From positions 56,453 through 120,452 of the forward strand of contig CANRWO010000003.1 of NCBI GenBank assembly GCA_947643615.1: a stretch of 64,000 nucleotides of DNA. Direction: 5' to 3'. Positions 3,276-64,000 of the stretch are shown in pieces. Each line of letters begins with the position of its first letter. The stretch's first letter is position 1. The position numbers and the translations under genes are program-made. The notes beneath the pieces were generated by a model that saw only the letters and a list, made by a program, of their open reading frames with translations, was not told the origin of the DNA and made no database searches. This DNA is from an uncultured Lachnospiraceae bacterium. Its GTDB lineage: Bacteria > Bacillota > Clostridia > Lachnospirales > Lachnospiraceae.

Positions 3276-3376
3276 TATCTTTCTTTCGATATCTTTTTTT
3301 CGACATCTTTCATTGATTACTTTCTTTTATTTATCCGTTGTTCTATAGCGGCTCCGGGCATGGCTGCCCCGGCAGG

Positions 3377-3592
3377 TCATCTGCCTGGACTCCCCTCAGC
3401 CGCCAGTCCGTATATCTCATACATGGAAAGCATATTCTGGTACATCATCTTCCGTGACAGCATCTGCTGGTAAGTAACTGTCTTTACTTTCCCCTCCGAC
3501 TTCATCTTATCCATCTTGGATAAGATGTCTGCATATTCCTTCTGCACTGCTGCCAGCATCTTCTCAAATGCTTCCAACCTGCCGTTTTCCAT
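3377..3592 (-). CDS. Small hypothetical protein
   Basis: 71-aa ORF in a same-strand run just downstream of the 3596-3940 gene. Confidence 0.5.
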   Translation of the reverse strand: MENGRLEAFEKMLAAVQKEYADILSKMDKMKSEGKVKTVTYQQMLSRKMMYQNMLSMYEIYGLAAEGSPGR

Positions 3593-3595
3593 ATA

Positions 3596-3940
3596 TCATT
3601 CCCTCTCCGTTACCGTTACGCAGACCGTATCGCCGGGCTGTTTTCCTATTTTGGAGCGGATATCCTTCCGTATGCCAATGATATAGCAGACACTGCCATC
3701 CGCATTTTTAACGCCCATATTTACAATGCTGCCATCGTAAGGTTCCCCGTCAAAGGTAACATGGGCCTTCACCCTGCCTTTGCCAAATTCCGTCCTGATA
3801 TCATAGGGAAAGGCCACATATGCGCCGCCCTTCCCTTCCGCTTCATAGATCAGGGATTCATATTCATAAACTTGCCGGTCCAGGTCCAATCCCCCCTTCC
3901 CTGCTGTGCGGAAAAGGCACAATTGCCCTGCCATGCTCAC
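3596..3940 (-). CDS. DUF1905-like protein
   Basis: YEYESLIYEAEGKGGAYVAFPYDIRTEFGKGRVKAHVTFDGEPYDGSIVNMG pattern. Confidence 0.75.
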   Translation of the reverse strand: MSMAGQLCLFRTAGKGGLDLDRQVYEYESLIYEAEGKGGAYVAFPYDIRTEFGKGRVKAHVTFDGEPYDGSIVNMGVKNADGSVCYIIGIRKDIRSKIGKQPGDTVCVTVTERE

Positions 3941-4505
3941 ACATTATGTTCCACACGGATATGATCATACTTCCGGTACATTTCAATGGCCTCCGAGAGA
4001 TTGTGATACCCCATCAATACCCTTTCCTTGGCGCCGTCTGCCAGTTCCATGCAAAGGTAGTAATTGGTCTGCCTCTTGGAACGTTCTTTTTCGCTGTGTA
4101 TCCGGACGATCTCTTTATTTTCCACCACTATGTTTTTAAATTCATGGCTGAACGTCCACGGGTCTCCCACCCATATATCATCAATCTTCCGGGCAACGTC
4201 AAACCCATGGTCAAGCTGCGCCATTGTGACTTCCGGGTGCTTCTCCAGAAAACGATCCACCTTTTTGCTCACCGGGTTGGCAAGCTGCTTGAAAAAATAA
4301 ACAGGGCGACCAGGAGTATAAACAACCCTATGGCCGATAAACCATATATATTGCCCAAAGATTCGTCCAATATGGGCGTCAGTCCCTGTAATGCCAGGAA
4401 CGCTGAGGGCGCGTACTTCCATAAAAGGACTCCCGCCATTAACAGACACCCCAAAAGGAGGAACCCTGTGCTCATCCATGCCTTCTTCGTCAACTTTTTT
4501 ACCAT
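3937..4505 (-). pseudogene. Membrane protein gene split by a frameshift at a 6-T run
   Basis: N-terminal TM part in ORF 4269..4505 and soluble part in ORF 3937..4479; frames overlap at the A6/T6 run 4292-4297; adding one T joins them (LFIF-FKQLANPV). Confidence 0.6.
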
Positions 4506-4603
4506 TGCTTTCCTTCTCCTTCGTTATCCTACTTTACCGAACATGTCTGCAAAGCACATCCCGCAGGCGTATGTCACAAACATATTCGAAAGCATTATAA
4601 CAC

Positions 4604-4641
4604 AAACCATGCAAAAAAGAAATTATTTTTGCATGGTTTTT
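4604..4641. terminator. Bidirectional terminator-like hairpin
   Basis: aaaccatgcaaaa-agaaatt-attttgcatggttttt. Confidence 0.65.
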
Positions 4642-4900
4642 AACTCTTTATTCCGGAAGCATACTCCGGTTCAACCCGATATAGGCAAGCAGGATGTACA
4701 CCGCATAGATCAGGAAGAACAATCCCAGCGCCGGGCAGACAGATATCCAATATAATAAGATCCGGGCAGGCTTCCGCAGCCTTTCGGGGAATCTCCGTAA
4801 AATCCGTCACCGCCACGGGGCAATATCCCTCGTTTCCCAACAAAAGCTCCAGCTCTTCACGAATGGCACGGTCATCCTCCACAATCATAATTTTCTGCAT
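4640..4900 (-). pseudogene. Truncated response-regulator receiver domain fused to a hydrophobic tail in another frame
   Basis: MQKIMIVEDDRAIREELELLLGNEGY...PDLIILDICLPG is a receiver N-terminus and then stops matching the family. Confidence 0.65.
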
Positions 4901-5044
4901 TTTGTTCTCGTCCCTTTGTTCCCCTAATTTCCGTCTTCAGCGGAAGCACCAAGGTCTTTTGTCCTCCCCTGTCCATAGAATGACAGGGCCGGCAACGCGG
5001 ATCATGTGAAAAAATATCTATTATTTGGCAAATATACCACAGCA

Positions 5045-7703: not shown

Positions 7704-9200
7704 TTATTCCGGCAGATATCTCTGATACAATGCAACCTGGTCCCTGATACAGATCCAGGCGCTGTCCGACCCTGCCGTCACACAGATATATTCCCTTCCG
7801 TCATGGTCCGATGCCAGGCTGGCCGCACAGTTTTTAGACTGATCCACGTACCCTGTCTTAGCGCACAATACCTCTCCGTGGGTATCCCTATCCTCTATCC
7901 TGCGCAGGAACAAGTTAGAGATATCGATCCCCCCGGGATGTTCCGCCGTGGACGTTGTCACATAACGGTGTTCCGAAAGTACCTTTCGGCAGAATTCGTT
8001 GTCCGCAGCTTCCTTCAAGATGACCGCCATATCATAGGGCGTGCTGTAATGGTTTTCGTCGTACAGGCCTATACAATTTGTAAAATGAGAGGTTTCCGAC
8101 AATCCCAGTTCCACCAGCTTGTCGTTCATCATATCCACAAATGCCTCATGGGAGCCTGCCACATATACCGCCAACCCAAGAGCGGCGTCCGCCCCTGACT
8201 TCAAAGCCGTACCGTAGAACAAATCTTCCACGGGTATCACTTCGCCAACCTCAAACCCTACATTGCTGCAGTCATTTACGAAGCTGTAGTCGGTAATATC
8301 AATCGTCATGGTAAAAGTGCCGTCCATATCCGTTATATGCTCCGCCGCCACCAGCACCGTCAATATCTTCGTCATGGAAGCCGGGTTGATCCGGCTCCAT
8401 CCGTCTCTCTGGGCCAGTACTTCACCGCTCCCTACATCGATCATGATGCCGTGGGGACTGCTGATCTCTCCGCCGAAACCGTCGGTATGCTCCGTGGTAC
8501 CCGCCTGGAATACCTGCCGCGGCGCATCCGGCAGCACCGACACCACCGCGGAGGCTGCGTCCGACGGTATAACGGCCGCGGAAAATCCCCCTGCCTGCGT
8601 GTAAACCAGGGTTTTTGAAAGGGCGTCGGCTACGAAGTCCTCCGGTTTAGTGCCCCCGCTGCCGGACAGGGAACCGTCCCCGGCAGCGGAGCCAAGGGTA
8701 TCTCCCTTTCCGGACGCAACGCCCTCCTCCGGACGCAATGCCTTAAGGATACCCGCGGTTAAGAGAAAGAGGCACAGAACCGCAGCAACTGCCATAGCCG
8801 GCACCCCATATCGGAACATCAATTCCCGCCGGCGTTTCTCCCTTTTCATTTCTTCGATTCTCTTCCTGCGTCTTCGCCGCCTTTCCTGTTCCTCTCTTTC
8901 CTCCTCACTCAACTCCGTTTCCCGAAGAGGTTCTTTCGGCATGTCTGTTGCCCGGAAAGGTTGTCTGACCCGGCCCGTTTCCCGGAAGGGTTCTCCCACC
9001 TGACCCGTTTCCCGGAAAGGTTGTCTGACCCGGCCCGTTTCCCGGAAGGGTTGTCTGACCTGACCCGTTTCCCGGAGGGGTTCTATGCCCCGCCCTGTTG
9101 CCCGGAAGGGTTCTTCCGGCCTGCTATCCCGGCGCTCTTCCTTCCGGATGCTTAATTCTTCCGTATACATAAAACTCCTTTTTTCCACACTTCCAATCAT
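7704..9200 (-). CDS. D-alanyl-D-alanine carboxypeptidase (serine-type) with repeat-containing cytoplasmic N-terminus
   Basis: SMTK (SxxK), KSGADAA, KTG motifs; single TM; N-terminal decapeptide repeats. Confidence 0.88.
   Translation of the reverse strand: MIGSVEKRSFMYTEELSIRKEERRDSRPEEPFRATGRGIEPLRETGQVRQPFRETGRVRQPFRETGQVGEPFRETGRVRQPFRATDMPKEPLRETELSEEEREEQERRRRRRKRIEEMKREKRRRELMFRYGVPAMAVAAVLCLFLLTAGILKALRPEEGVASGKGDTLGSAAGDGSLSGSGGTKPEDFVADALSKTLVYTQAGGFSAAVIPSDAASAVVSVLPDAPRQVFQAGTTEHTDGFGGEISSPHGIMIDVGSGEVLAQRDGWSRINPASMTKILTVLVAAEHITDMDGTFTMTIDITDYSFVNDCSNVGFEVGEVIPVEDLFYGTALKSGADAALGLAVYVAGSHEAFVDMMNDKLVELGLSETSHFTNCIGLYDENHYSTPYDMAVILKEAADNEFCRKVLSEHRYVTTSTAEHPGGIDISNLFLRRIEDRDTHGEVLCAKTGYVDQSKNCAASLASDHDGREYICVTAGSDSAWICIRDQVALYQRYLPE
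8901..9110 (-). repeat. In-frame 30-bp tandem repeat, about 7 copies
   Basis: PFRATGRGIE/PLRETGQVRQ/PFRETGRVRQ/PFRETGQVGE/PFRETGRVRQ/PFRATDMPKE/PLRETELSEE. Confidence 0.85.
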
Positions 9201-9254
9201 GCCGCCAAGAGGACCACAGACATCTCTCTAAACGGCACAAACAATCCCAGGAAA

Positions 9255-9944
9255 CTACAGGTCCCGGGAGTCTGTTATCTCTTGCAAAGCTTCTTTGAAT
9301 CGCATATAGCGTTCCCAAAACTGCACATAAAAATCCTGCCCTGTCCCATATTCCGCCATATAAAAAATCTTGAGGAGGGCCATGTTGGCCTGCTTTGCCA
9401 CCGCTTCGTCCCCGCAGTCTCCCACAAGCGCTTCCAGCTCATTCAAAAGGGAATGCCACCGGCAGATAAATTCATGGTACTTTTCCTGCTGTGGCGTGTC
9501 GATCCATTTGCTGACTTTTACCTTTGACCGGTTGCCTGCCGAACATTCATGGGTCTGGAGGATGTATTTATAATCGCCGTCCTGGTAATACCTGCCCAGC
9601 GGAAACAGTCTGCATATTCCCGGCCTGAATTCATGGATACCACAGCGTCCATGGCCGTCCAGGAATACGCAGGCCTCCTCCTGCCCCGACATGCTCAGGT
9701 TTGGCAGAATACAGCCGTCAACCACATTTAATTCCGCTGCACCCTCCTGCAGTAAAGCTTCAAATCCTTTTCCCAACCCCGTTTCCAACCTGTACACGTC
9801 ATAGGGGTCGAGGATAACCGATTTGCCCATGCCACGGCAGCAGTCAGAGCATCCGCCGCATCCATGGCAATCTGCTTTCACCATATCGTTTCTGCCGTAT
9901 AACCGTCCGTCTGAAATTTCCGCAAGGCTGACATTTCTCTTCAA
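9255..9944 (-). CDS. YkgJ-type cysteine cluster protein
   Basis: CHGCGGCSDCCRGMG...CGIHEFRPGICRLFPLG. Confidence 0.88.
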   Translation of the reverse strand: MKRNVSLAEISDGRLYGRNDMVKADCHGCGGCSDCCRGMGKSVILDPYDVYRLETGLGKGFEALLQEGAAELNVVDGCILPNLSMSGQEEACVFLDGHGRCGIHEFRPGICRLFPLGRYYQDGDYKYILQTHECSAGNRSKVKVSKWIDTPQQEKYHEFICRWHSLLNELEALVGDCGDEAVAKQANMALLKIFYMAEYGTGQDFYVQFWERYMRFKEALQEITDSRDL

Positions 9945-9985
9945 GATTTAATTCCCCTTTTCACCTGATATTGCAGACTGGTGCC

Positions 9986-10876
9986 TCAAAATCCATATTT
10001 GTCCACAAGACGCCTGTATTCATCCTCCGTGACAGGGATGATCCCGCCATGCCGTTTCTTCGTGTATCCCATATCAAACTCACTGTCATCCAATATCCTG
10101 AATTCTCCGCCGGCAAGGTCGTCCGTCACCAACGGCAGATACCCCTTCTCGGAAGCAAACCTGTCTACAATAAGGCACCATTTCCTGCTGTCATTAAACC
10201 GGAAAATCTCAGGCCCTTCTACCCCGTACAACCCATCCAGCGTGGCAGACCTTACCTCCTTAAAATCCTCCGGGTGCAGCGTTTTGCTGAAATCGATGCA
10301 AATTACCTTAATGGTCTCATCTTTTGTATAACGGTAATACCCCTGTTCCGTATGGATGATAGTGCTGTCTATCACATGGTTTTCCTTTTCCATAAAGACA
10401 AAGGGATCCGTGAAATTCTCAAAGTCCGTGGTATAAGAAGCATATATTTTCTGCTTCCCATCCACCATGGAGGCCCAGAATACAAGTACTGCATCCTTCT
10501 CCGCGTCATAAATCGCCTCAGGCGCCCAAACACAGCCTGCCCCTTCCACCCCTATGGTATGGGGTTTTGGCCCCTGCCAATTTACCAGATCCTCAGATTT
10601 CCACACAAGGATATCCCTGCTCCCGCCGTATTGTGCCGTTTCCCAGCCTTTTCCCGACTCAATCCTCAAATCTGTGGCAATCAGGTAAAACATATCCTCC
10701 GTGCGGATCAAAAAAGGGTCCCTGGCCCCCTTCTCACCCACGTCACTCCTTAAAACTGGCCTTCCTTCCGTCAAATCACGCCAATGTAACCCATCACGGC
10801 TTACGGAAAAATAAATCTGTTCCCCGTCCTTCCGTTCACTGGTAAAATGTGCGAATAAATATCCCGTATACTCCAT
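9986..10876 (-). CDS. GH43-like five-bladed beta-propeller glycosidase
   Basis: ARDPFLIRTEDMFYLIATDL, WAPEAIYDAEKDAVLVFWAS, GVEGPEIFRFNDSRKW. Confidence 0.78.
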   Translation of the reverse strand: MEYTGYLFAHFTSERKDGEQIYFSVSRDGLHWRDLTEGRPVLRSDVGEKGARDPFLIRTEDMFYLIATDLRIESGKGWETAQYGGSRDILVWKSEDLVNWQGPKPHTIGVEGAGCVWAPEAIYDAEKDAVLVFWASMVDGKQKIYASYTTDFENFTDPFVFMEKENHVIDSTIIHTEQGYYRYTKDETIKVICIDFSKTLHPEDFKEVRSATLDGLYGVEGPEIFRFNDSRKWCLIVDRFASEKGYLPLVTDDLAGGEFRILDDSEFDMGYTKKRHGGIIPVTEDEYRRLVDKYGF

Positions 10877-10926
10877 CTGCCCTCTCGCCCTTTCGTCGTC
10901 TCTTTTGTTGCTTCCTAATATTGATC

Positions 10927-11083
10927 CCCTTAATCTTTCCCCTTGTTATTTCTCCTGCTCTGTCTTCTTGTTGTTTCCTCTTGTTATTTCCCCTTAGTCT
11001 TTCCTCTTGTTCTTTCCTCTTGTTATTTCCTCTTGTTATTTCCCCTTATTGTTTCCTCTTAGTCTTTCCCCTTGTTCCTCTTA
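10927..11083. repeat. Intergenic 13-bp degenerate polypyrimidine minisatellite
   Basis: Roughly a dozen units of (t/c)cttgttatttcc variants in tandem. Confidence 0.8.
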
Positions 11084-11159
11084 TGCTTCTGTGCCGGCCA
11101 TTTTCCGCAGGGCTGCCCCTTCATTTCAGCGTGCTTGCCCCCTGAGGCAGTCTTCCCTC

Positions 11160-12257
11160 TTAAAGCAGGCCTGATGAAGCATGCTTCTTTTCCATGATTT
11201 CCCTCAGGCTCTGGGAATAAGGGGCCCTGGCCACGCCATACTCTGTGACGATACCGGAGATAAGGTCATGTGCCGTAACGTCAAAAGCCGGGTTATAAAC
11301 TTTTACGCCTTCCGGGGCCATCCTCTCTTTATACCACATTTCCGTCACTTCCCGATCCGGCCTCTCCTCGATCCTGATCTCCGCGCCGGTGGGCGTCTCC
11401 ATATCTATTGTGGAAGTAGGCGCACAGACATAAACCGGAACACCATAATGCTTTGCCACCGTAGCTACCACGGAGGTGCCAATCTTATTGGCTGTGTCAC
11501 CGTTTGCCGCCACACGGTCGCAGCCTACGAACACCGCCTGCACCAACCCCCTGGACATCACATTGGCGGACATGTTGTCACAGATCAGCGTCACATCCAC
11601 CCCCGAAGAGTGAAGTTCAAAGGCGGTGAGCCGTGCCCCCTGTAAAAGAGGCCTTGTCTCGTCCGCATAGACACGGAATCCATACCCCTTTTCGTGCCCC
11701 AGATAAATAGGCGCCGTAGCCGTGCCGTATTTCACCGCCGCAAGCTTCCCTGCATTGCAGTGCGTCAGTATCCCGTCGCCGGGTTTTACCAGTCCTAACC
11801 CATTCTCGCCTATTTTACGGCAGACTCTGATGTCCTCATCCCTGATATCCAAAGCTTCCCGGCGCAGAGCCTCTCTTACCTCCGCAACCGATTTCCCTTC
11901 GTCCCTGCCTGCCTTCAGAGCCACGGCTTCCATGCGTTTCAGCGCCCAGGAAAGGTTTACTGCCGTAGGCCTGGAGGAGTCCAGATAGTCCTTATATTCA
12001 CGGAACCTGTCATAAAAATCTCCGAAATCCTCCTCCTGGATCTGTTTCGACAACACATAAATTCCCATGGCCGCAGCCACACCAATGGCAGGGGCCCCGC
12101 GTACCTTCAACAGATAGATGGCATCCCATATATCCTGGGCCGTCTTCAAGGATATCAGCTCTGTCCTGCCGGGGAGCAGGGTCTGGTCAATAATCACCAC
12201 AGCGCTCTTTTCGTCGTCCAAGGCAACCGTATCGTATTCCATAATATTGTTTTCCAT
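11160..12257 (-). CDS. mtnA: S-methyl-5-thioribose-1-phosphate isomerase
   Basis: LKVRGAPAIGVAAAMG, THCNAGKLAAVKYGTATAPI, GCDRVAANGDTANKIGT. Confidence 0.94.
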   Translation of the reverse strand: MENNIMEYDTVALDDEKSAVVIIDQTLLPGRTELISLKTAQDIWDAIYLLKVRGAPAIGVAAAMGIYVLSKQIQEEDFGDFYDRFREYKDYLDSSRPTAVNLSWALKRMEAVALKAGRDEGKSVAEVREALRREALDIRDEDIRVCRKIGENGLGLVKPGDGILTHCNAGKLAAVKYGTATAPIYLGHEKGYGFRVYADETRPLLQGARLTAFELHSSGVDVTLICDNMSANVMSRGLVQAVFVGCDRVAANGDTANKIGTSVVATVAKHYGVPVYVCAPTSTIDMETPTGAEIRIEERPDREVTEMWYKERMAPEGVKVYNPAFDVTAHDLISGIVTEYGVARAPYSQSLREIMEKKHASSGLL

Positions 12258-12290
12258 AGAGTTTCCCACACCTTTCCGTAGCACACTCTG

Positions 12291-12773
12291 CTACCTGATA
12301 ATATCCGCAAATTCTGCCCCTGCGGCCCTGGCCAGATCCTGAGGTGAGAGTTCCAGCTGGGAACCGACCCTGCCTCCGCTGACAATCATCTTATCCAGCA
12401 TCCGGGCAGTGCTGTCTATCCTGGTGACATACTGCTTCTTCATCCCCACTGCCGTACAGCCGCCCCTGACATAACCGGTGACCATGTTGATGTCCTTCAC
12501 ATGGATCATCTCCACACTTTTCTCACCCACGCTTTTGGCCGCCGCCTTCAAATCCAATTCCTCCGCAACAGGGACCACGAACACATAATAATTTTTGCTG
12601 TTCCCAACCGTCACCAATGTTTTATACACTTTCTCATATGGCAGCGAAAGCATGTCCGCTATCTGCAGTCCGTCTATGAATTCATCACATTCGTAAGTGT
12701 ATTGTTGAAAAGGGATCTTCATGCTTTCCAAAATTCTCATGGCATTTGTCTTTACTTCTTTTTGTTTCGCCAT
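12291..12773 (-). CDS. ybaK: YbaK/EbsC family aminoacyl-tRNA deacylase
   Basis: KVYKTLVTVG, GYVRGGCTAVGMKK, VSGGRVGSQLELSPQDL. Confidence 0.9.
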   Translation of the reverse strand: MAKQKEVKTNAMRILESMKIPFQQYTYECDEFIDGLQIADMLSLPYEKVYKTLVTVGNSKNYYVFVVPVAEELDLKAAAKSVGEKSVEMIHVKDINMVTGYVRGGCTAVGMKKQYVTRIDSTARMLDKMIVSGGRVGSQLELSPQDLARAAGAEFADIIR

Positions 12774-12949
12774 ATCTACCTCCCTGCGCCTTCCTTGTCA
12801 ACACTTTACCATACCGACAGGAAATCAAGCACAAACAGGACGACCATTTGATTTCACCCGGCAAGGCAACGAAAGAATCAATAAATTTGAACAATTTATT
12901 TTACCATATATCCCCGTTTTAAGCTACGTTTTATTCGTTCAAAAAATGG

Positions 12950-12978
12950 TTTACAAAATCCGGTTCCTTTGGTATACT
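12950..12978 (+). promoter_or_regulatory. Sigma-A type promoter for tyrS leader
   Basis: TTTACA - 17 nt - TATACT. Confidence 0.65.
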
Positions 12979-13014
12979 GATTTCACAATTTATATTCAAG
13001 TGATTGATTTAGAA

Positions 13015-13400
13015 AAGCAATGACAAGAACAAGTAACACACGGTGGAACGTACAGAAAGCTGCCGGCCGATGAGAGGCGCATGGGAAGCAGTGTGTGAAT
13101 ACATCTTTGAGCTTCGCACCAAATGCTGTTTTATCGTTACCCCACGAATTAAGGTGGTTTTATGGACAGTTAGTAGGCTGCGACGGTTCCTGCATCCGTT
13201 ATCGTGCTAGAGTATAAACCCGACGGATTTTATCTGTCCGGCAGTACTTCCCCTGCCCAGCCGATTGAGCGGGGTTGCCGGGAATATCTGTCCGAGAGGC
13301 TGTACTTGAAGAGGCCGCCAGGCGTGAGCCTGGCAGTAAACATTAGGTGGTATCACGAGACGTTATGCTCTCGTCCTTTTGAAGGACGGGAGTTTTTTGT
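13015..13400 (+). ncRNA. T-box leader, Tyr specifier
   Basis: T-box taggtggtatcacgag (13344-13360); specifier loop GAA-TAC-A (13100-13102); terminator ctctcgtccttttgaaggacgggagtttttt; tyrS follows. Confidence 0.9.
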
Positions 13401-13461
13401 TTTCGTTTTCATTGTGCATCTTGATCAATACCTTGCAAAATCGAAGGGAGAAAACAGAACA

Positions 13462-14700
13462 ATGGAAAAACAAAACACAGAGCAGGTAAGAGCAATGGCA
13501 GAACACCAGATGAGAATCATTAAACAAGGCGCCGCCGATCTCATCGGAGAAGCGGACCTGAAGGAAAAACTGGAAAAGAGCATTCTCACCGGGATCCCCC
13601 TGAACATTAAATTTGGCATGGACCCCAGCGCCCCCGACCTGCATCTGGGGCATGCAGTTGCCCTGCGTAAGTTAAAACAGCTTCAGGACCTGGGGCATAC
13701 TGTCATTATCATTGTGGGTGATTTCACGGGAAAAATTGGCGACCCTACGGGAAAGAGCAAGGGCAGGAAGGCTTTGACAGATGCCGAAGTATTGCGCAAT
13801 GCCCAGACCTATCAGGAACAGGTATTCCATATCCTGGACAGGGAGAAGACCGTAGTCCGTTACAATGGCGAATGGCTGGAGCTGCTGCAGTTGGACCGGA
13901 TACTCAAGCTTGCTTCCACCATCACTGTGGCAAGAATGTTGGAGCGGGACGATTTCCAGACCCGCTTCCGCAACAATATGCCTATCGGACTGCACGAATT
14001 CTTTTACCCCCTTATGCAGGCCTATGATTCCGTGGAAATAGAGGCTGACCTGGAACTGGGCGGCACGGACCAGACCTTCAATATCCTCATGGGCAGAAGC
14101 CTCCAGAAAGAGATGGGCCAGGAACCCCAGGCAGCATTGTTCATGCCCATTTTGGAGGGGACGGACGGAGTGGAGAAAATGAGCAAAAGCCTTGGCAATT
14201 ACATCGGTATCTACGAAGATGCCAGGAATATGTTCCAGAAGGCCATGCAAATACCCGACGGCATGATCCTTAAATATTTTGAGCTGGCCACTGATATTTT
14301 GCCGGAAGATCTGGACCGGATCAGGATATCGCTGGACAACGGCTGCAATCCCAGAGATGTCAAACTGCATTTGGCGGAAACAATCGTCTCGTTATACCAC
14401 ACCCCTCAGGAAACGCAGGAGGCAAAGGAATTTTTTATCCAGGCTTTTTCCAAGAGAGAGATTCCCCACCAGGTAGATACCCTGTCCGTTCCCCGCGAAC
14501 AGGGACGGCTGTCAGAATATATCCAACTCCTGGTTTCCGCAGGTTATGCCCCAAGCGGAAGTGAGCTCCGCAGGATGGTAGCCCAGGGCGGGGTCAGCAA
14601 AAACGGGAACCGGATGGAAAGCGTGGACGAAATAATAAACTCCGGGGATGTGCTGAAAATTGGGAAACGCAAATTTGTTAAAATAACAAATCAGCTGTAA
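13462..14700 (+). CDS. tyrS: Tyrosine--tRNA ligase
   Basis: KFGMDPSAPDLHLGHAV, TVIIIVGDFTGKIGDPTGKS, KMSKSLGN, C-terminal S4 domain; ATG at 13462 in the longer ORF. Confidence 0.95.
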   Translation: MEKQNTEQVRAMAEHQMRIIKQGAADLIGEADLKEKLEKSILTGIPLNIKFGMDPSAPDLHLGHAVALRKLKQLQDLGHTVIIIVGDFTGKIGDPTGKSKGRKALTDAEVLRNAQTYQEQVFHILDREKTVVRYNGEWLELLQLDRILKLASTITVARMLERDDFQTRFRNNMPIGLHEFFYPLMQAYDSVEIEADLELGGTDQTFNILMGRSLQKEMGQEPQAALFMPILEGTDGVEKMSKSLGNYIGIYEDARNMFQKAMQIPDGMILKYFELATDILPEDLDRIRISLDNGCNPRDVKLHLAETIVSLYHTPQETQEAKEFFIQAFSKREIPHQVDTLSVPREQGRLSEYIQLLVSAGYAPSGSELRRMVAQGGVSKNGNRMESVDEIINSGDVLKIGKRKFVKITNQL

Positions 14701-14719
14701 ATTGAGCTGCAAGGCTATG

Positions 14720-14800
14720 CGGAGGAATTGTTGAACAAAATTGCGGCAAGATAGAGGCCAAGGCTGCGGCATAGTACAGCAATTTCGTTCAATCGGTGTG
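14720..14800. repeat. Imperfect long inverted repeat
   Basis: ttgttgaacaaaattgc ... gcaatttcgttcaat flanking a ~30-nt G/C-richer interior. Confidence 0.45.
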
Positions 14801-14825
14801 AACTAACAACATTGTGTTAAAACCC

Positions 14826-14849
14826 AGGCTCGGCCTCTCGGCCGAGCCT
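14826..14849 (-). terminator. Terminator downstream of the dipeptidase
   Basis: aggctcggcc-tctc-ggccgagcct; minus strand followed by tgggttttaa. Confidence 0.65.
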
Positions 14850-14863
14850 GCATATATTTGGGG

Positions 14864-15949
14864 TCATGCTAATGTATCCCTGTACACTCTAAGAACATTT
14901 TTCCAGAAAATATGATCCAGCTGGCTCTCGGAGAACCCTGCCCTGCGCATTCCTTCCCAGAGAGCTTCCATTCCCTCCGCCCCTGGGATTTCCTCATAAG
15001 TGCTGATGCCGTCAAAATCACTTCCCAGGCCCAAAACCTCAATACCCCCCACATTGGCAATGTGCTTAGCATGGCGTGCCACTGACTCAATAGAGCCGTG
15101 GTTTTCCACTCCTACCGGCTTCTCTTCCAGGAAGTCAGCACAATAGTTAAGTCCCATAACGCCTCCACGTTCCGCCAGCTTCCGTATCATGTCGTCCGTC
15201 ATGTTCCGCACGCAGGGGCAGACGCTCCTGGCATTGGAATGGCTTGCCACAAAGGGTTTCCCTGTCACAGCCAGGACATCATAAAATCCTGCGTCTGAGA
15301 GATGGGAAACATCGGGAATAATGCCCAGGCGTTCCATCTCCGACACAAGCTCTTTTCCTCTTTCCGTCAATCCCCCGGTACTGTTGCAGGTACGGTTGAA
15401 GGCCTCAAATGCAGTTTGCGCCTCATTCCGCTTCCGCTCATATTCCTCCGTGCCCGGCTCGCACTTTTTCCAGGCTTCCTTTGCCTCCGAAGCCCTCTTC
15501 CCAAGCTCCCGGTCGAAATTAGGTGACCCGATCTCGTTGGGGAAATTCCATGTCAGCGTGATCATGCGCACACCCATTTCGTACAGCCTTCTAAGCTTCT
15601 CCGCCTCACCCTTGCAGACAGCGCCTTCCTCCACGGTCAGCATGGCAGACAGCTTTCCCGCCGCCTCGTTGGCGGCAATGTCTGCATAACAAAGCACCGG
15701 CGCTAAAATATCCTGATTGCGTTCCAGCTCCTTTTTATAATATCGGTACAGCTTACAAACTCTTTCCCAGGGATCCCCGTCACAGTCCAGCTCCACGAAC
15801 AGGGCGAAATTCTGGAGAAGGTAGTGGCTGTCACGCATACGCTGCAGATCCAGATGGCGTCCATTCCTGCGCAGCTCTTCCGCCTTTCCCTGCTCTTCCA
15901 GGCAGAGCAGCTTGTAAACAGTATCACAGTGCATATCAATAACTTTCAT
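14864..15949 (-). CDS. Membrane dipeptidase (peptidase M19)
   Basis: MKVIDMHCDTVYKLL, TLTWNFPNEIG, DVSHLSDAGFYDV, SHSNARSVCPCVRNM, GLGSDFDGI. Confidence 0.93.
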   Translation of the reverse strand: MKVIDMHCDTVYKLLCLEEQGKAEELRRNGRHLDLQRMRDSHYLLQNFALFVELDCDGDPWERVCKLYRYYKKELERNQDILAPVLCYADIAANEAAGKLSAMLTVEEGAVCKGEAEKLRRLYEMGVRMITLTWNFPNEIGSPNFDRELGKRASEAKEAWKKCEPGTEEYERKRNEAQTAFEAFNRTCNSTGGLTERGKELVSEMERLGIIPDVSHLSDAGFYDVLAVTGKPFVASHSNARSVCPCVRNMTDDMIRKLAERGGVMGLNYCADFLEEKPVGVENHGSIESVARHAKHIANVGGIEVLGLGSDFDGISTYEEIPGAEGMEALWEGMRRAGFSESQLDHIFWKNVLRVYRDTLA

Positions 15950-17003
15950 ATACTACCGCATGCTCCTTCAAAAAATTTTTCCAGATATCAATATACTGCG
16001 CTTTCAAATGCACTCCGTCAAAGGTATAGGAAGCTTCCATCCCGCCGGTGTCATCACAGATTTCCGGATTCACATCCAGATAAAAGACCCTCTCGTTGTC
16101 TGCCAACTGCGAAAGCGCTTCATTCCTCGCCTCAATCCCCTCGTTGTTGATATAGTCCCCCTGCTGGGAACGCTCAGTTGTCACCTTGATGATCCCCTGG
16201 ATATAAAGAATGGCATCCGGCTGCAGCTCCAGCAAATGGTCCACCGCCTCTTTATAAGCAGCCACAAAGCTCTCCACCGTTCCCGTGCCCATCTCGTTGA
16301 TGCCGATCATGAGATAGATCTTGGCATAGGATTTCTGTAAAAGCGCCTCCTCCACCGATATCTTCTTTCTCTGCCCCTCAACCGCCACAATTTCCGAATC
16401 AAACAGTTTATACACAGTCAAGCCTGTGGAAGCATAAAAATCCGCCGTCTCCTCCAACCCGCCGTATTCGAACATGCCCACTGTCCGGGAATCACCGATG
16501 AACACGGCATCCGCAAAGTAATCATCCTCCACCGTATGGTACACCAAGCCGCCGTCGGAACCTTCCGTCTCCGGTGACACTCCTTGGCCCGCCGGATTCC
16601 CTGTTTCCGGCGCCTCCGCGGGGTCTCCTGTGGGCGCTGCCACATCCCCTTCGGGCATTACCGGATTTCCGCTCTCCGATTCCCCGGTTCCATCTTCTCC
16701 GGGCAGGGCGGAACCGTCTGCCCCGGATACGGTGATTCCCTCTGTACCGGATACGGTGGATCCGTCCGCACCCGATACCGTAATACCGTCCGTGCCTGAT
16801 ACCACATTCCAAAATAGGTCTTCTTCCGCCCTGACATTGCCTGCCTGGCGAAGGTCCTGTTTGATCCCCTCATACCAGCTTTTTATCTGTCCCAGAGGTT
16901 TCGCATAGACCTGCCACTGATCCACCACCGACAGATATATAATGCCTGCCGCGACCCAAACGATCATGTATCTCCATTTTCTCCACCATTTCAAAATTAT
17001 CAC
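15936..17003 (-). CDS. SGNH/GDSL-like hydrolase, membrane anchored
   Basis: VFIGDSRTVGM, IYLMIGINEMG, FDGVHLKAQYIDIW; N-terminal TM and low-complexity linker. Confidence 0.82.
   Translation of the reverse strand: MIILKWWRKWRYMIVWVAAGIIYLSVVDQWQVYAKPLGQIKSWYEGIKQDLRQAGNVRAEEDLFWNVVSGTDGITVSGADGSTVSGTEGITVSGADGSALPGEDGTGESESGNPVMPEGDVAAPTGDPAEAPETGNPAGQGVSPETEGSDGGLVYHTVEDDYFADAVFIGDSRTVGMFEYGGLEETADFYASTGLTVYKLFDSEIVAVEGQRKKISVEEALLQKSYAKIYLMIGINEMGTGTVESFVAAYKEAVDHLLELQPDAILYIQGIIKVTTERSQQGDYINNEGIEARNEALSQLADNERVFYLDVNPEICDDTGGMEASYTFDGVHLKAQYIDIWKNFLKEHAVVYESY
16689..16805 (-). repeat. In-frame 24-bp repeat in linker
   Basis: VSGTDGIT/VSGADGST/VSGTEGIT/VSGADGSA. Confidence 0.8.
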
Positions 17004-17017
17004 CTGTTCCTTATACG

Positions 17018-18412
17018 CTAAAAATCCCGATACATAAACGGATTCTGTCCCTCAACCTGTAATCTCCAAACACAGATCCAGAAGAGTATGATCAGCAAAA
17101 GCATCCCCGGCAGACGGTCTTTCAGCTTGCGGAAAAGCTTCTCCACAGCCGGCGTACAGGCTAATCCACCTACTGCCAGCAAAACGCCGTAATTCATAAG
17201 CGCTTTCCTCCAGTCACCTGTGCCGACACGAATCCCTTCTGTCACACCAAACATCCTGCCCAGGTACATCTCAAGCTGGGACAGATCAGTAATGGCAAAG
17301 CACATCCAGCTAATGACGATCACAAACCACAGATAGAAATGGGGAATTACCTTCAGGATCCCCCAGGAAAACAATTTCCCCATGCCCAGCCGTCCTAATT
17401 GCCTCTCCATAACGATCAAAAACCACAGCATCATTCCCCAAATCAGGAAATTCGGGGTACTGCCATGCCAAACCGCCGTCAACAGCCATACACACAGCAG
17501 ATTGAACAAGGTACGCCATTCGCCCTTCCTGTTCCCACCCAAAGGAACATAGACATAACGGCAGAACCATTGTCCCAGCGTCATATGCCACCTGCGGTAA
17601 AAATTTCTGACGGAGCTTGCCATATAGGGATTCTTGAAATTCGACGGCAGAGAGAAACCCAGCATCTGCCCCAGACCGACAGCCATAAGAGAATATCCGT
17701 TAAAGTCGAAATACAGCTTCATAGAATAGGCAACGGCGGCAATCCACGCAAGGGGTGTGGAAATACTTTCAAATCCAGTGACCTGGACTTCCCTCCACAA
17801 AATTCCCAGGCGGTCCGCCAATAAAACCTTATATACAAGGCCCAGTGTAAAGATCTCAAGTCCGGCCTGTATGTTCTTTGCAGAAAATTCTCTTTCGTAT
17901 AATGCCCCCCGTACCTCCCCATATCGTGAAATGGGGCCGGACAGCAGCTGCGGGAACATGGCAATATATGCCGCCAACCGCAGAAAGGAGGTCTCTTTCG
18001 TCTCTTCACCCTTATAAACATCAATCAGATAAGAAAGGATCCGGAAAGTGTAATAGCTGATGCCCAAAGGCAACCCACCCGCTCCGATCCCGCTCTTAAA
18101 CACTGCAAGTACTCCGATATTTCCCACCACAGCCACAGCCAGCAGGATTTTTCTTTTGTATTCAAAATTTTTTTTCTTTTGTTTTTTATCCTTACCCTTC
18201 AGCCTTGCCCCTCTTGCCAGGTGCAACCCCAGAAAATAATTTACTGACACGGAAACAATCAGCAGCCATAAATATTCTGGCTCCCCAAAAGCATAGAAAA
18301 CCAGGCTGCCTGTCAGCAGTACAAAATTTTTCATATAACGGGGAGTCACACCATACAGAAGCAGAAACAGCGGCAGAAAACAGAGTAAGAATTCTATACT
18401 GCTAAATTCCAA
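17018..18412 (-). CDS. MBOAT family O-acyltransferase (AlgI/DltB-like)
   Basis: FFPQLLSGPISRYGEV, FDFNGYSLMAVGLGQMLGF, NFYRRWHMTLGQWFCRYVYVPLGGNRKG, LTAVWHGSTPNFLIWG. Confidence 0.93.
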   Translation of the reverse strand: MEFSSIEFLLCFLPLFLLLYGVTPRYMKNFVLLTGSLVFYAFGEPEYLWLLIVSVSVNYFLGLHLARGARLKGKDKKQKKKNFEYKRKILLAVAVVGNIGVLAVFKSGIGAGGLPLGISYYTFRILSYLIDVYKGEETKETSFLRLAAYIAMFPQLLSGPISRYGEVRGALYEREFSAKNIQAGLEIFTLGLVYKVLLADRLGILWREVQVTGFESISTPLAWIAAVAYSMKLYFDFNGYSLMAVGLGQMLGFSLPSNFKNPYMASSVRNFYRRWHMTLGQWFCRYVYVPLGGNRKGEWRTLFNLLCVWLLTAVWHGSTPNFLIWGMMLWFLIVMERQLGRLGMGKLFSWGILKVIPHFYLWFVIVISWMCFAITDLSQLEMYLGRMFGVTEGIRVGTGDWRKALMNYGVLLAVGGLACTPAVEKLFRKLKDRLPGMLLLIILFWICVWRLQVEGQNPFMYRDF

Positions 18413-18546
18413 GAATTATCACATCTTTCATCGCTTCTATATCTCTATAGTATCGTTTTAGCTGTCCTATTACAACAAAAATTTTCTTAATTTTACCTAA
18501 CAATTTTTTACAAATTTATTGCAAATCATTCCGGTTATGTTAAGAT

Positions 18547-18700
18547 AAAAAAGCGAACAAGTTCGCTTGCGAGTTTGCTCCGCAAACTCGGGTTCCCAAT
18601 CGCCTGGCGGCTCGGTTTTCTTATTGTAAAAAACGAACAAGTTCGCTTGCGGGTTTTGCTCCGCAAACTCGGATTCCCAATCGCCTGGCGGCTCGGTTTT
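18547..18700. repeat. Two near-identical ~73-bp direct repeats containing nested hairpins
   Basis: aaaaaa(g)cgaacaagttcgcttgcg(a/g)gttt(t)gctccgcaaactcgg(g/a)ttcccaatcgcctggcggctcggtttt at 18547-18619 and 18628-18700. Confidence 0.9.
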
Positions 18701-18748
18701 ACAAGCCCGGTTTTACATAAAGGGTAATGGTTTGGAGGAATATTAGGG

Positions 18749-19351
18749 ATGAACAGCAAATTTTTTGACCTGAAAAAAGAAAAACAGGACCGGATGATCA
18801 ACGCGTCCCTGAAAATCTTTGCCCTTCAGGGGTACCGCCACGCCAGCACCGACGATATCGTAAAGGAGGCCGCCATCAGCAAAGGGTTGCTGTTCCATTA
18901 CTTTGGAAGTAAGCTGGGAGTGTATACTTTCATCTACGATTACAGTGTACGCTATATGAACCTGGAGCTGAAATCCAGTGTGGACTCTGAAGAGAGCGAT
19001 ATGTTCCTGCTCATAAAGCAGACGGAAGCGGCGCGCATGCACGCCATGCGGGGTTACCCCTACATGCAGCAGTTCCTCAACCGCTCCATGTCCGAGGATG
19101 TAAGCGAAGCGCTGCTTGCCATTGAGGCAAAGCGAAACGTCTTAGTGGACACCTATGAAACCATCTGCCGGCAGATGGACTTCTCCTCGCTTCCGGCAGG
19201 GACGGACGGAGAAAAGCTCCGCAAAATGCTGGACTTCACCATCAAGGGGCTGATGACGGAACGTTTTCAGGACGCCTCCTTCCAGCCGGAAATGCTGTAC
19301 GAAGAGATTTGCTGTTACCTGGATATGGTCAGGCAGCTGGTATACCGCTGA
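18749..19351 (+). CDS. TetR/AcrR family transcriptional regulator
   Basis: RMINASLKIFALQGYRHASTDDIVKEAAISKGLLFHYFGSKLGVYTFIYDY. Confidence 0.92.
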   Translation: MNSKFFDLKKEKQDRMINASLKIFALQGYRHASTDDIVKEAAISKGLLFHYFGSKLGVYTFIYDYSVRYMNLELKSSVDSEESDMFLLIKQTEAARMHAMRGYPYMQQFLNRSMSEDVSEALLAIEAKRNVLVDTYETICRQMDFSSLPAGTDGEKLRKMLDFTIKGLMTERFQDASFQPEMLYEEICCYLDMVRQLVYR

Positions 19352-60031: not shown

Positions 60032-60547
60032 TTAATTGAAAAAGCAACCTATATTTGCATAAATATGCATTCTGTAATTCATAAACGATATTGCCGGACA
60101 ATTACCTGTATGTATTACGGCAATGTGTAACCCAAACGCCACACTAATATATGGAAGAAACGCCACCGGATGCCTGAGATTTCCGTCCCTGGCAATGTTG
60201 CGCCTGAAAAGCTGCACCGGAAAAAGCAGCATAAGCGCCAGGAGCATCAGTTTCAGATAACCCCTAAACCCCATTCCCAGCGCAGCCTCCGCTATGGCAC
60301 AAACACAGAACGCATAGCAATCCGCCTTACCGTACATACGGGAAAACATCCACATCTGAAGCGCCATAAAAAGGGCCAGCTGCCACAGCACCTCCGCCTT
60401 CCCCGGGCAAAGGCTCTTCCACAGCAGTCCGCCGGCTGCCAGGCCGCCGAACCACCAGGTGAAATTATATACCCTTTGGCTCCTGAGATCCGTGATGCAG
60501 CCGAATAGCAGACTGCACCACAGAATGCCCCATAACACCGCCCTCAC
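60032..60547 (-). CDS. A24-type prepilin peptidase-like protein
   Basis: FGCITDLRSQRVYN (first catalytic Asp context) and GKADCYAFC (second Asp, GxxD-like); polytopic. Confidence 0.7.
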   Translation of the reverse strand: MRAVLWGILWCSLLFGCITDLRSQRVYNFTWWFGGLAAGGLLWKSLCPGKAEVLWQLALFMALQMWMFSRMYGKADCYAFCVCAIAEAALGMGFRGYLKLMLLALMLLFPVQLFRRNIARDGNLRHPVAFLPYISVAFGLHIAVIHTGNCPAISFMNYRMHIYANIGCFFN

Positions 60548-63500
60548 CGGAGCCTGGTGCGGAAATCATCCAAGACCGTTCCGCTTACCTCTACAACACT
60601 GAGTTCGGGATATTTCTCCAGCTTCCTGTCACCCTTGTACGCCCTCACGGTGACCGTATATTCCCCATTTGCGGGAGTGTATAAAGGGATCATAAATTGC
60701 ACCTCCTCTTCCTGACAATACTTTGGACTGCCTGCATATTCGATCCGCCGGTTCAATCCGGGATCCTGTTCCGCCATTTCCGGTGGAAATTCTATCTCCA
60801 CATAGTCGGGATACCCCCATGCCGAAATATGCAATACACCGCTTTCCCCATTTTGGAACACAGGGGTATGAGGTGACAGGATTCTCTCTACCTGAGCCGT
60901 CAACCCAAATTCCGTGGTTTCTCCGGCCACACTTATTTCATTTCCCACATTGTCCGCCGCATAGGCCACTGCCGTGAAATCCCCGGAGAACAACGGATCC
61001 GCCGCCGTCAGCTCCACCTGTATCAATCCCCCATCGTCAGGTAATATCTTCCTGCTGCAATTATTGTCCGTATTATAGACCATCAGATAGAAATCCCTGA
61101 CACCGCTTAGCTCATCCGCGGCGGTAAGGCTTAAAACCGGGGCATTGACCCTCCGGTCGATAAGAGGCAGGTTCCGCAGGAGATCCATCCCGCTGATCAC
61201 AGGCGGTTCCCCGTCGCCGATCAATACCAGCCCATGCCGTTGGTCTTCTTCCTGTGCCGAATAAAACATACTCCCCATCCATTGGGCCCCCGCCCGGGGA
61301 TATACTTCTACCCTTTTTCCCGATGCGGCTTCTTCCAATGTGTATTTCTGAGTGACCGAGAGGATACGGTTCCTGTCCTCACGGAATGCCTGCGTATAGG
61401 GATAATACGCCAGATATGTCTCATTTTCTGCTGAGAAATCCAACAGCCTGTCCGGGACCCTCAGCTCTCCGGGCGAGATTGCCTGATTCCGGACGGAGAT
61501 ACGGCTGCAAACGGGAACCGGGTCCTCCCGTTCCCGGGAGACGAAAAGGGCGTGGTTGATCTGATAACGATCTGTTGCCCTACCGTCAATATATCCCCGA
61601 TACCCCAGTGTAAACGGCGTTGCCCCATCACTGCGGACATACCAGCTGCGCTCCCCTGCGGGGTAAATATTATCCCCATCCGCCGCAATGGTAAGCGGCT
61701 CCGTGTGCAGAGGCCTGGCCGCCGCATCGGCATCCAGGAGGACATGGACGGTTTCGCTTATATTTCCGGCCACATCCACCGCAGCAATATGCAGATAGCA
61801 GGCCTTGTCCCCAACCTCCACCGCCAGTTCCGGCGCCTTTGTATATTCTGCCCCGGCTGTTGCCTCTGTATCTTCCATCTCGTCCACACAACAATAATAC
61901 CCCTTTACTCCCGATACCAGCGTGTTCACTGTTTCGTTGGAGCGGCATAAAGCCTGGCCGACACCGGCAAAATAGGATTCCGCCATATGGTAATATGCCG
62001 TTCCACGGTCTTCCGGCTCCTCCCATGTCACCAGGACCATGCCTGCTGCCAACCCTTCCTTTTTTATGGATTCCATAGCCACCGGGTCAGGCGCTTCCAG
62101 GTCTGTGGCCCGGACACCCTCCAGGCTGTGCCCATCCGTAAACCCCACGGATATGGACTGCATTCCGAAGCTGCCGTCCCCCTTTTGGGTTCCCGGTTGT
62201 TTTGTATAAGAATACGCATACTCTTCATTTACATAACTGCTGCCGCCATAGGAAGGACTGGATGCGATCACCTGTCCCTCCGCCATGCCGCATACGGTCT
62301 CCCGTCCGCCCCGAAGATTTACTTCCGTGATCATGGCATTCACAGTGTCATGGGAAATGGCAGACCCTCCCCTGGACAGGGCCTCCACGTAAATTCCCGT
62401 GACACCCGCCGGGATATCTATGGTGTAATTGAGGAGCACCCCTGTTTCAACACATCCTACACTCCTGACAAAAAATAAAGGCGTGTTTTCCAAATGATAC
62501 CCCGTATCACCCGTAGCCTGAAAAGCACGTTCCGGGAAAAGAGGATAATCTCCCCCGGTGCCGTTCCCTCCAAGCTGCACCACAGGGGCCCCTTCCATGC
62601 TCTTAAATTCTCCCATGACCCTGGATGTGCCGTTGTCGCCCCTGACCGACCAATACTTTGTATGCCCTCCGTTATCCTGTCCATCCTCATCCTTTTCCGG
62701 CAGCATCCACACAAATTCCGTATGGAACCGGGGGAAAAGCAGGTTGGTACCGTCCTGCCGCCATGCCCTCTCCTGCCTGTCAAGGATCTCCCGTTTCAGC
62801 ACGCCGCTGTTATGGAGGAGACCGCTTAAATCCCGGCTGAAAAAGCATCTTCCGTCCTGGTCATATATCCGCAGGCAGGAGTCCTGCCACAGCTCACCAT
62901 TCCTGCAGATCTGCTTCCAGAGCACCGCCTGTACGTCGGCAGAAGTGTTCCCTCTCACCGGAATCGGATTGGCCTTGTTCCCAGCCATCCGCAGGACATA
63001 CTGGTAGCACCGATCACATTCATAATCCTCCGAATCGTGCCCGATGGCCACATGATAGTCTATTTTGTGGGAAAGCAATGCTCCCTCCAGGCCATTATAT
63101 GAAGAATCCCGGTAACAGGAATCCTCATGCCGATGCACGATCCGTTCTCCTGCGGCGCCGCCTCTGTAACCGCCTCCCCCTCCGGCGCCTCCGGATCCGC
63201 CGCCATATCCCGTTCCAAGCAGGCCGCTCTGGCTTCCCCCGGCTCCGCCTGCCCCTGCTTCGGTGGCCCCGCCGCCTCCTCCGGCAACCAGCAGCACACC
63301 TTTCCGATCCGAAGTGACTACCGTACAGCCTCCTCCGTCCGTATACATATCTCCTTTGCCGCCCCCGTTATATCCGTCCGTTCCGCCCACCGTATATGTC
63401 AACGTTTCTCCGCATTCCAGCCAGAACACAGCCGCAGCGCTTCCGCCCTGCCCGCCGGCATGGCTGCCGTAACTGCCTCCCTGGGCCCCGGCAGCCGTCA

Positions 63501-63768
63501 AGGTATACAAGCCGGCATCCTTCACGGTAAAGGTTCGGGGACTTCCCTCACAGGAACCTGCCACCGTCTCTGTTTTTTCTTTACCTATCTCCTCCGCACG
63601 GTAAATCTTATCCCAGTTTTTCCCGTCCGTGCTTTGGTACAACAAATACCATTTGTCCTTCCCGTCTGTCTGCTCCCAGGAAAGATCCACCGCCCCTTTC
63701 CCGCCGTTGGCCTGATAATTGTCCTCCCCACGGAGCCTCAGGTCCACCCATTGGGCATACAGTGTCAA
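60544..63768 (-). CDS. Large surface protein: InlB-type repeat remnant + ALK/LTK-like glycine-rich domain + Ig/Fn-like C-terminal regions
   Basis: LYAQW motif, FTVKDAGLYTLTAAGAQGGSYGSHAGGQGG...VLLVAGGGGGATEAGAGG; coding continues upstream of the TTG at 63768 without an ATG. Confidence 0.8.
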   Translation of the reverse strand: MTLYAQWVDLRLRGEDNYQANGGKGAVDLSWEQTDGKDKWYLLYQSTDGKNWDKIYRAEEIGKEKTETVAGSCEGSPRTFTVKDAGLYTLTAAGAQGGSYGSHAGGQGGSAAAVFWLECGETLTYTVGGTDGYNGGGKGDMYTDGGGCTVVTSDRKGVLLVAGGGGGATEAGAGGAGGSQSGLLGTGYGGGSGGAGGGGGYRGGAAGERIVHRHEDSCYRDSSYNGLEGALLSHKIDYHVAIGHDSEDYECDRCYQYVLRMAGNKANPIPVRGNTSADVQAVLWKQICRNGELWQDSCLRIYDQDGRCFFSRDLSGLLHNSGVLKREILDRQERAWRQDGTNLLFPRFHTEFVWMLPEKDEDGQDNGGHTKYWSVRGDNGTSRVMGEFKSMEGAPVVQLGGNGTGGDYPLFPERAFQATGDTGYHLENTPLFFVRSVGCVETGVLLNYTIDIPAGVTGIYVEALSRGGSAISHDTVNAMITEVNLRGGRETVCGMAEGQVIASSPSYGGSSYVNEEYAYSYTKQPGTQKGDGSFGMQSISVGFTDGHSLEGVRATDLEAPDPVAMESIKKEGLAAGMVLVTWEEPEDRGTAYYHMAESYFAGVGQALCRSNETVNTLVSGVKGYYCCVDEMEDTEATAGAEYTKAPELAVEVGDKACYLHIAAVDVAGNISETVHVLLDADAAARPLHTEPLTIAADGDNIYPAGERSWYVRSDGATPFTLGYRGYIDGRATDRYQINHALFVSREREDPVPVCSRISVRNQAISPGELRVPDRLLDFSAENETYLAYYPYTQAFREDRNRILSVTQKYTLEEAASGKRVEVYPRAGAQWMGSMFYSAQEEDQRHGLVLIGDGEPPVISGMDLLRNLPLIDRRVNAPVLSLTAADELSGVRDFYLMVYNTDNNCSRKILPDDGGLIQVELTAADPLFSGDFTAVAYAADNVGNEISVAGETTEFGLTAQVERILSPHTPVFQNGESGVLHISAWGYPDYVEIEFPPEMAEQDPGLNRRIEYAGSPKYCQEEEVQFMIPLYTPANGEYTVTVRAYKGDRKLEKYPELSVVEVSGTVLDDFRTRLR

Positions 63769-64000
63769 ATCCGTCCCGGGGACGATGCTGTCCCCGGGGG
63801 CCCCCGCCGGAAGCTCAAATCCGGGGTCGTAGTACCACCCCCCAAAGGAGCTGCCCTGTTTCTCCGTAGCCGGAAGGATGATACTGTCATACTCGTAACA
63901 TGCTGTCAGTCGATCACTCTCCCCCTCCGCGGATTCATAGCTATAAACTCCTCGTATAATAAGTTTGTAAGCAAGAAAAACAGCTTACAGACTTATTCTT

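What the first reader, a model, noticed from the sequence alone, without database searches (positions are those of the whole stretch)
60032..63985. Glycine-rich surface protein coupled to a prepilin peptidase
The large protein and the A24-type peptidase overlap by 4 nt (translational coupling). The surface protein has an InlB-type LYAQW repeat, a glycine-rich domain like the ALK/LTK receptor glycine-rich region (PF12810-like), and an unusual HRHEDSCY...CDRCY segment. The peptidase suggests this is the end of a Tad/type IV-like pilus locus that continues beyond the window, with the giant protein as a possible tip adhesin.
Basis: partly seen in the sequence, partly recalled or inferred. Interest (0 to 1): 0.6.

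Follow-up and report, generated by a model that had tools for sequence, protein, structure and literature searches.

The report
Tad-pilus operon with giant modular adhesin
The window ends inside the last two genes of a conserved pilus operon of gut Lachnospiraceae whose signature is a giant secreted protein, probably the sticky tip of the pilus, and in this genome that gene has been cut in two by a jumping gene.

Summary
A glycine-rich protein of over 1,100 aa (60544-63954, -) overlaps a divergent A24-type prepilin peptidase (60032-60547, -) by 4 nt. The window ends at the contig end. The rest of the locus is on contig C14 of the same genome: TadA ATPase, TadB, TadC, a small pilin-like protein, two TadE-like proteins, CpaB, and the first ~376 codons of the giant gene. 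An IS110-family element splits the gene. In 54 of 54 evaluable relatives (Lachnospiraceae, mostly Acetatifactor) the order is TadA-TadB-TadC-pilin-TadE1-TadE2-CpaB-GIANT; the peptidase follows in 63 of 65. Across 138 genomes of the genus, 99 of 107 with this TadA carry the giant, against 1 of 31 without. The giant has a Sec-type signal, conserved N- and C-terminal domains (C-terminus RTRLR), InlB repeats, an ALK/LTK-like glycine-rich domain, a hypervariable segment and beta-sandwiches; short forms lack the middle. Best reading: a Tad pilus variant in which a PilY1-like secreted adhesin takes the place of the pilin-type TadG tip. Tip location and ligand are inferred. The pilin lacks Glu5, so a one-substrate secretion machine is the main rival. 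In passing: this IS110 family inserts into Shine-Dalgarno sequences.

The parts
60032..60547 (-). Divergent A24-type (TadV/CpaA-like) prepilin peptidase, 171 aa; candidate catalytic Asp20 (TDLRSQRVYNF) and Asp76 (YGKADC)
   Evidence: PF01478 below cut-off (13.6 bits; 14.6 bits); 6 of 14 relatives match PF01478, best 3.7e-4; both Asp invariant in 14 relatives; directly after the giant in 63 of 65 loci
60544..63954 (-). C-terminal ~1,136 aa of the giant secreted protein (ORF called 60544-63768 from TTG; homology runs up to the IS110 junction)
   Evidence: 71% identity to L041 residues 377-1512; AlphaFold2 mean pLDDT 79
63745..63909 (-). InlB / Listeria-Bacteroides repeat (PF09479 type), LTACYEYDS...LYAQWV
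   Evidence: PF09479 in L041 5.6e-10, 2 stretches; coordinates
63142..63546 (-). Glycine-rich domain resembling the ALK/LTK glycine-rich region
   Evidence: Profile hits to scd-2, ALK and LTK; pLDDT mostly 88-96
62254..63141 (-). Hypervariable segment (includes HRHEDSCY and CDRCY); best candidate for the ligand-binding part
   Evidence: About 30% median identity between relatives whose flanks have medians of 45-53%; low pLDDT inside
60880..62253 (-). Tandem beta-sandwich (Ig/FN3-like) domains
   Evidence: AlphaFold2 strands; Foldseek hits to adhesin extender repeats, ICAM-5, FN3 and PrgB Ig domains
60547..60879 (-). Conserved C-terminal domain ending ...DDFRTRLR; proposed docking end
   Evidence: Shared by long and short forms; 51 of 66 giants end exactly in RTRLR and 6 more in a one-residue variant
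63953..64000 (-). End of an IS110-family element (non-coding, hairpin-bearing end) that interrupts the giant gene; 2-bp core AG/CT at 63951-63952
   Evidence: Same 53-54 bp start contigs C35, C83, C112; partner end on C14; IS110 transposase in copies elsewhere

Best explanation
The finding is the 3' end of a nine-gene Tad (type IVc) pilus operon. TadA powers, and TadB/TadC form the membrane platform for, assembly of a filament of the short pilin-like protein, with the two TadE-like proteins as minor pilins, CpaB as extracytoplasmic conduit, and the coupled peptidase as processing enzyme. The giant protein is exported by Sec, folds outside, docks through its conserved C-terminal domain (ending in RTRLR) on the minor-pilin tip, and presents the glycine-rich and hypervariable modules on a beta-sandwich stalk as an adhesin. 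It would work like PilY1 on type IVa pili, in place of the pilin-anchored TadG/KilN tip. Shown by computation: gene content and order, co-occurrence, domain make-up, Sec-type N-terminus, hypervariability, and interruption by an IS110 element in this genome. Inferred: filament assembly, tip location, docking end, ligand binding.
For: Operon completed on C14. TadA: T2SSE 1.3e-15 and best NCBIfam hit the TadA family 5e-26; TadB and TadC each one T2SSF domain; CpaB with SAF domain. Order conserved in 54/54, peptidase next in 63/65. Co-occurrence 99/107 against 1/31 genomes. N-terminal hydrophobic signal, no other TM-like stretch, no LPxTG. Hypervariable middle between conserved ends. Adhesin-type folds; viral fold hits include phage tail and host-specificity proteins. 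[quoted passage not shown] other Tad tips use pilin-fused large domains (PMC12075869, PMC12607857).
Against: The small pilin-like protein lacks Glu5 and matches no Pfam pilin family; the window peptidase is below the PF01478 cut-off; no TadZ next to TadA here. The giant also keeps a conserved N-terminal domain with CxxC pairs, so which end docks is uncertain. There are no interaction or localisation data. In this genome the gene is interrupted.
Confidence: 0.58

Rival explanations
1. One-substrate secretion machine: the Tad-like apparatus builds a short pseudopilus that pushes the giant, already exported by Sec, through the cell wall, as pseudopili do for type II secretion substrates. The giant is a released or wall-bound exoprotein.
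For: The pilin-like protein lacks Glu5 and its core is near-invariant in relatives; one large exoprotein gene always sits in the operon; the giant has no anchor motif.
Against: Modular, hypervariable, glycine-rich and InlB/Ig make-up is typical of adhesins; TadA/TadB/TadC/CpaB and two TadE-like genes are as in pilus loci; the 99/107 co-occurrence fits either reading.
Confidence: 0.2
2. Ordinary surface protein: the giant is a cell-wall adhesin co-transcribed with the pilus genes but not a part of the pilus.
For: Sec-type signal and no pilin module; InlB and Ig repeats occur in many surface proteins; short forms exist.
Against: No sortase motif or other wall anchor found; position between CpaB and the peptidase kept in all evaluable loci; close co-occurrence with this TadA.
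Confidence: 0.15
3. Decaying locus: in this genome the operon is non-functional because the IS110-family element disrupts the giant gene.
For: Split at codon 376/377 between C14 and C3 with element ends on both sides.
Against: The other genes of the operon are open here, and giants without this interruption are found in about 99 other genomes of the genus. It concerns this strain only.
Confidence: 0.07

Closest known systems
Tad (type IVc, Flp) pilus loci, including the canonical Tad locus on contig C66 of the same genome
   Same: TadA ATPase, separate single-domain TadB and TadC side by side, small pilin, TadE-like proteins, CpaB/RcpC, A24-type peptidase
   Different: No TadZ next to TadA and no TadG-like pilin here; pilin core GIDGILVTVGL lacks Glu5, whereas the C66 pilin reads EEDGMGTVE; giant Sec-exported protein added; TadA only 29% identical to the C66 one
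PilY1/PilC tip proteins of type IVa pili
   Different: No sign of the PilY1 beta-propeller; the giant consists of beta-sandwiches, glycine-rich and InlB modules; the machine is Tad, not T4aP
TadG/KilN/CpaL tip pilins of Tad pili
   Same: Large subunit with variable domains proposed at a Tad tip together with two smaller minor pilins (PMC12075869, PMC12607857)
   Different: Those are pilins anchored by a pilin-like module; the giant has a Sec-type signal and no pilin helix
ALK/LTK glycine-rich domain and phage proteins with similar domains
   Same: Glycine-rich domain with shared non-glycine pattern; viral fold hits
   Different: Only one module of a ~1,500-aa multidomain protein; no kinase or receptor context

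Membership tests
Tad (type IVc) pilus system | TadA/CpaF-type secretion ATPase | tested here: met
   T2SSE 1.3e-15; best NCBIfam hit the TadA family (5e-26, below its curated cut-off); own C14 copy 91% identical to L041
Tad (type IVc) pilus system | Two separate, adjacent, single-T2SSF-domain platform proteins (TadB, TadC), as described in PMC6668835 | tested here: met
   PF00482 3e-6 and 4.3e-7 in neighbouring genes; both in 54/54 loci; PMC6668835 read
Tad (type IVc) pilus system | Flp-type pilin with class III leader and Glu5 | tested here: inconclusive
   Small protein with basic N-terminus, Gly and one hydrophobic helix in the loci, but no Glu5 and no Pfam pilin match
Tad (type IVc) pilus system | TadV/CpaA prepilin peptidase with two catalytic Asp | tested here: met
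   D20 and D76 invariant in 14; PF01478 matched by 6 of 14, the window protein itself below cut-off
Tad (type IVc) pilus system | CpaB/RcpC | tested here: met
   SAF domain 3.5e-5; CpaB model only 0.008
Tad (type IVc) pilus system | TadZ/CpaE | tested here: inconclusive
   None upstream of TadA on C14; PF16968 gives nothing over cut-off, but neither does it in the Caulobacter control
PilY1 family | C-terminal PilY1 beta-propeller domain | tested here: not met
   No Pfam match in the window ORF; model is beta-sandwiches; no PilY1 structure among the PDB hits shown
TadG/KilN tip pilins | N-terminal pilin-like module | tested here: not met
   The only strongly hydrophobic stretch is an N-terminal Sec-type signal
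Sortase-anchored surface proteins | LPxTG motif plus C-terminal TM segment | tested here: not met
   No LPxTG and no C-terminal hydrophobic stretch in the complete relative
ALK/LTK-type glycine-rich domain | Sequence-profile match to the glycine-rich region | tested here: met
   E 3.6e-8 to scd-2, 5.6e-7 to ALK; a part played by glycine composition cannot be ruled out, and PF12810 is not matched

The most novel reading that the evidence does not exclude
A distinct lineage of Tad machines in Lachnospiraceae, with a pilin lacking Glu5, that carries a Sec-exported, non-pilin, module-swapping giant tip protein: an independently evolved counterpart of PilY1 for Tad pili that diversifies its host- or glycan-binding segment between species.
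Probability: 0.35. Interest if true: 0.7.

Novelty: new variant of a known kind. Interest (0 to 1): 0.52.

Why it matters
How gut bacteria such as Acetatifactor and its relatives attach to mucus or host cells is poorly known, and what sits at the tip of Tad pili in Gram-positives is an open question. A nine-gene operon with an always-present, hypervariable giant protein gives a named candidate that can be tested in a species with a complete genome (Lachnospiraceae bacterium GAM79). If the giant is the tip, Tad pili would have a PilY1-like solution besides pilin-type tips.

Tried and rejected
Pfam on the window giant alone gave no family, and no PF12810. The conserved N-terminal domain (short form, pLDDT 94) found no convincing solved relative. 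A complete 1,074-aa protein was rejected: the ORF starts at an internal TTG and the relative has 1,512 aa. A self-splicing intron restoring the reading frame was considered for the interrupting element and set aside: ends and transposase are IS110-type and a 2-bp core fits. A restart of the C-terminal piece at the ATG after the element was rejected: that ATG is out of frame and meets a stop. The TadZ profile search was uninformative. Literature searches for this system in Lachnospiraceae/Acetatifactor and for IS110 at Shine-Dalgarno sites found nothing relevant in the held open-access library; subscription papers were not searched.

Full report
Place and completeness. The window is G000:C3:56453-120452 and its right edge is the end of contig C3. 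The giant ORF (60544-63768 from TTG) is open further upstream; homology to the closest relative first found (L041, 1,512 aa) begins at window position ~63954 and covers its residues 377-1512 at 71% identity. The first ~376 residues are on contig C14:54-1160, near TadA at C14:4999-6180. So the gene is split exactly between two contigs.

What splits it. The last ~48 bases of the window also start contigs C35, C83 and C112, and C14 begins with a different non-gene stretch. Copies of the same end in viral contigs are followed inward by an IS110-type transposase (PF01548 5.9e-25, PF02371 5.9e-22), and the other end of one copy (L167) resembles the C14 stretch. The junction GGGA[AG] ... [AG]GAGTTTATAG fits a 2-bp core insertion. 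The giant is therefore interrupted in this assembly; the ATG after the element is out of frame.

The operon. On C14, reading toward the giant: TadA (L063:4996-6273), TadB (4041-5012), TadC (3191-4135), a 78-aa pilin-like protein (2876-3112), two TadE-like proteins (about 2523-2879 and 1976-2563), CpaB (1172-1855), giant N-terminus (42-1184). In relatives, Pfam gives T2SSE, T2SSF, T2SSF, SAF, PF09479 and Peptidase_A24 in that order. A scan of 84,980 species with a profile of the giant returned 66 loci, nearly all in records titled Lachnospiraceae genera or Acetatifactor (a few MAG titles name other groups, probably mislabelled). Profiles built from the first 19 loci found all seven upstream genes in order in 54 of 54 loci with enough upstream sequence, and the peptidase directly downstream in 63 of 65. 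Some of these 66 loci are the same genomes as those used for the profiles. In 138 genomes of the genus, this TadA is in 107 and the giant in 100; comparing the two lists, 99 have both, 8 TadA only (one of these, G014, has a giant without the N-terminal domain), 1 giant only (59% complete), 30 neither. The E-value limits (1e-80, 1e-25) and incomplete genomes make these counts approximate.

The giant protein. It starts with a Sec-type signal, has no other TM-like stretch and no LPxTG. Order: N-terminal domain with a conserved CxxC (59 of 59), one or two InlB repeats, glycine-rich domain, hypervariable segment, beta-sandwich domains, C-terminal domain. 51 of 66 end exactly in RTRLR and 6 more in a one-residue variant. 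Long forms have ~1,330-1,600 aa; short forms of ~446-716 aa keep N- and C-terminal domains and drop the middle. Where C-terminal parts are 40-60% identical, the hypervariable segment is at a median of about 30%, while the glycine-rich part stays above 50%. AlphaFold2: window part pLDDT 79, short form 94. Foldseek: tandem Ig/FN3 adhesin-type domains with low global TM-scores, so domain type only. The glycine-rich domain matches ALK-family receptors by profile.

The pilin and peptidase. The small protein is almost invariant around GIDGILVTVGLCIIALLLCVVMKDSL. The canonical Tad pilin of the same genome on C66 reads EEDGMGTVEIIL with Glu5, so the focal pilin differs; three divergent relatives read GDKAIVVEVGL. 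The peptidase keeps two Asp but scores below the PF01478 cut-off; three better A24 peptidases exist elsewhere in the genome. Processing of the focal pilin is therefore not settled.

How it works. By analogy with PilY1, a secreted protein with a conserved C-terminal part that binds minor pilins and a variable distal part (PMC7541494), and with Tad tip complexes built from large minor pilins (PMC12075869, PMC12607857), the giant is most likely the tip adhesin. It is not a member of PilY1 (no propeller) nor of TadG/KilN (no pilin module). The secretion-machine and independent-adhesin readings remain open.

Novelty. No description was found in the held library. It is a new variant of the Tad kind, not a new kind.

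Noticed in passing
window 63953-64000; L063:1-52; starts of L007, L008, L009; L139-L172: An IS110-family element inserts almost only into Shine-Dalgarno sequences: all 33 distinct insertion flanks begin with the AG core, most read AGGAG, and about 30 have a start codon at normal spacing downstream; the element end (..TATTATACG) then rebuilds a GAGGAG ribosome site. A bridge RNA programmed for AAGGAG is a possible reason; not tested.
   Followed up: partly
L178 (G000:C66), about 8800-18790: A separate, canonical Tad locus in the same genome (A24 peptidase, TadZ-like, TadA, TadB/TadC, Flp pilin with Glu5, TadE/F/G-like), useful as an internal comparison.
   Followed up: partly
L179 (G000:C1:96000-112000): A third TadA/TadB/TadC-like set with CpaB- and TadE-like genes next to DNA methyltransferase genes and conjugation-type proteins, probably in an integrative element.
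   Followed up: no
window 60547-60561 and C-termini of relatives: The exact C-terminal pentapeptide RTRLR in 51 of 66 giants has no explanation; it could be a docking or sorting signal.
   Followed up: no
L046:1964-2998, L048:6349-7131: In some relatives an extra lipoprotein-like gene with CxxC motifs sits between CpaB and the giant.
   Followed up: no
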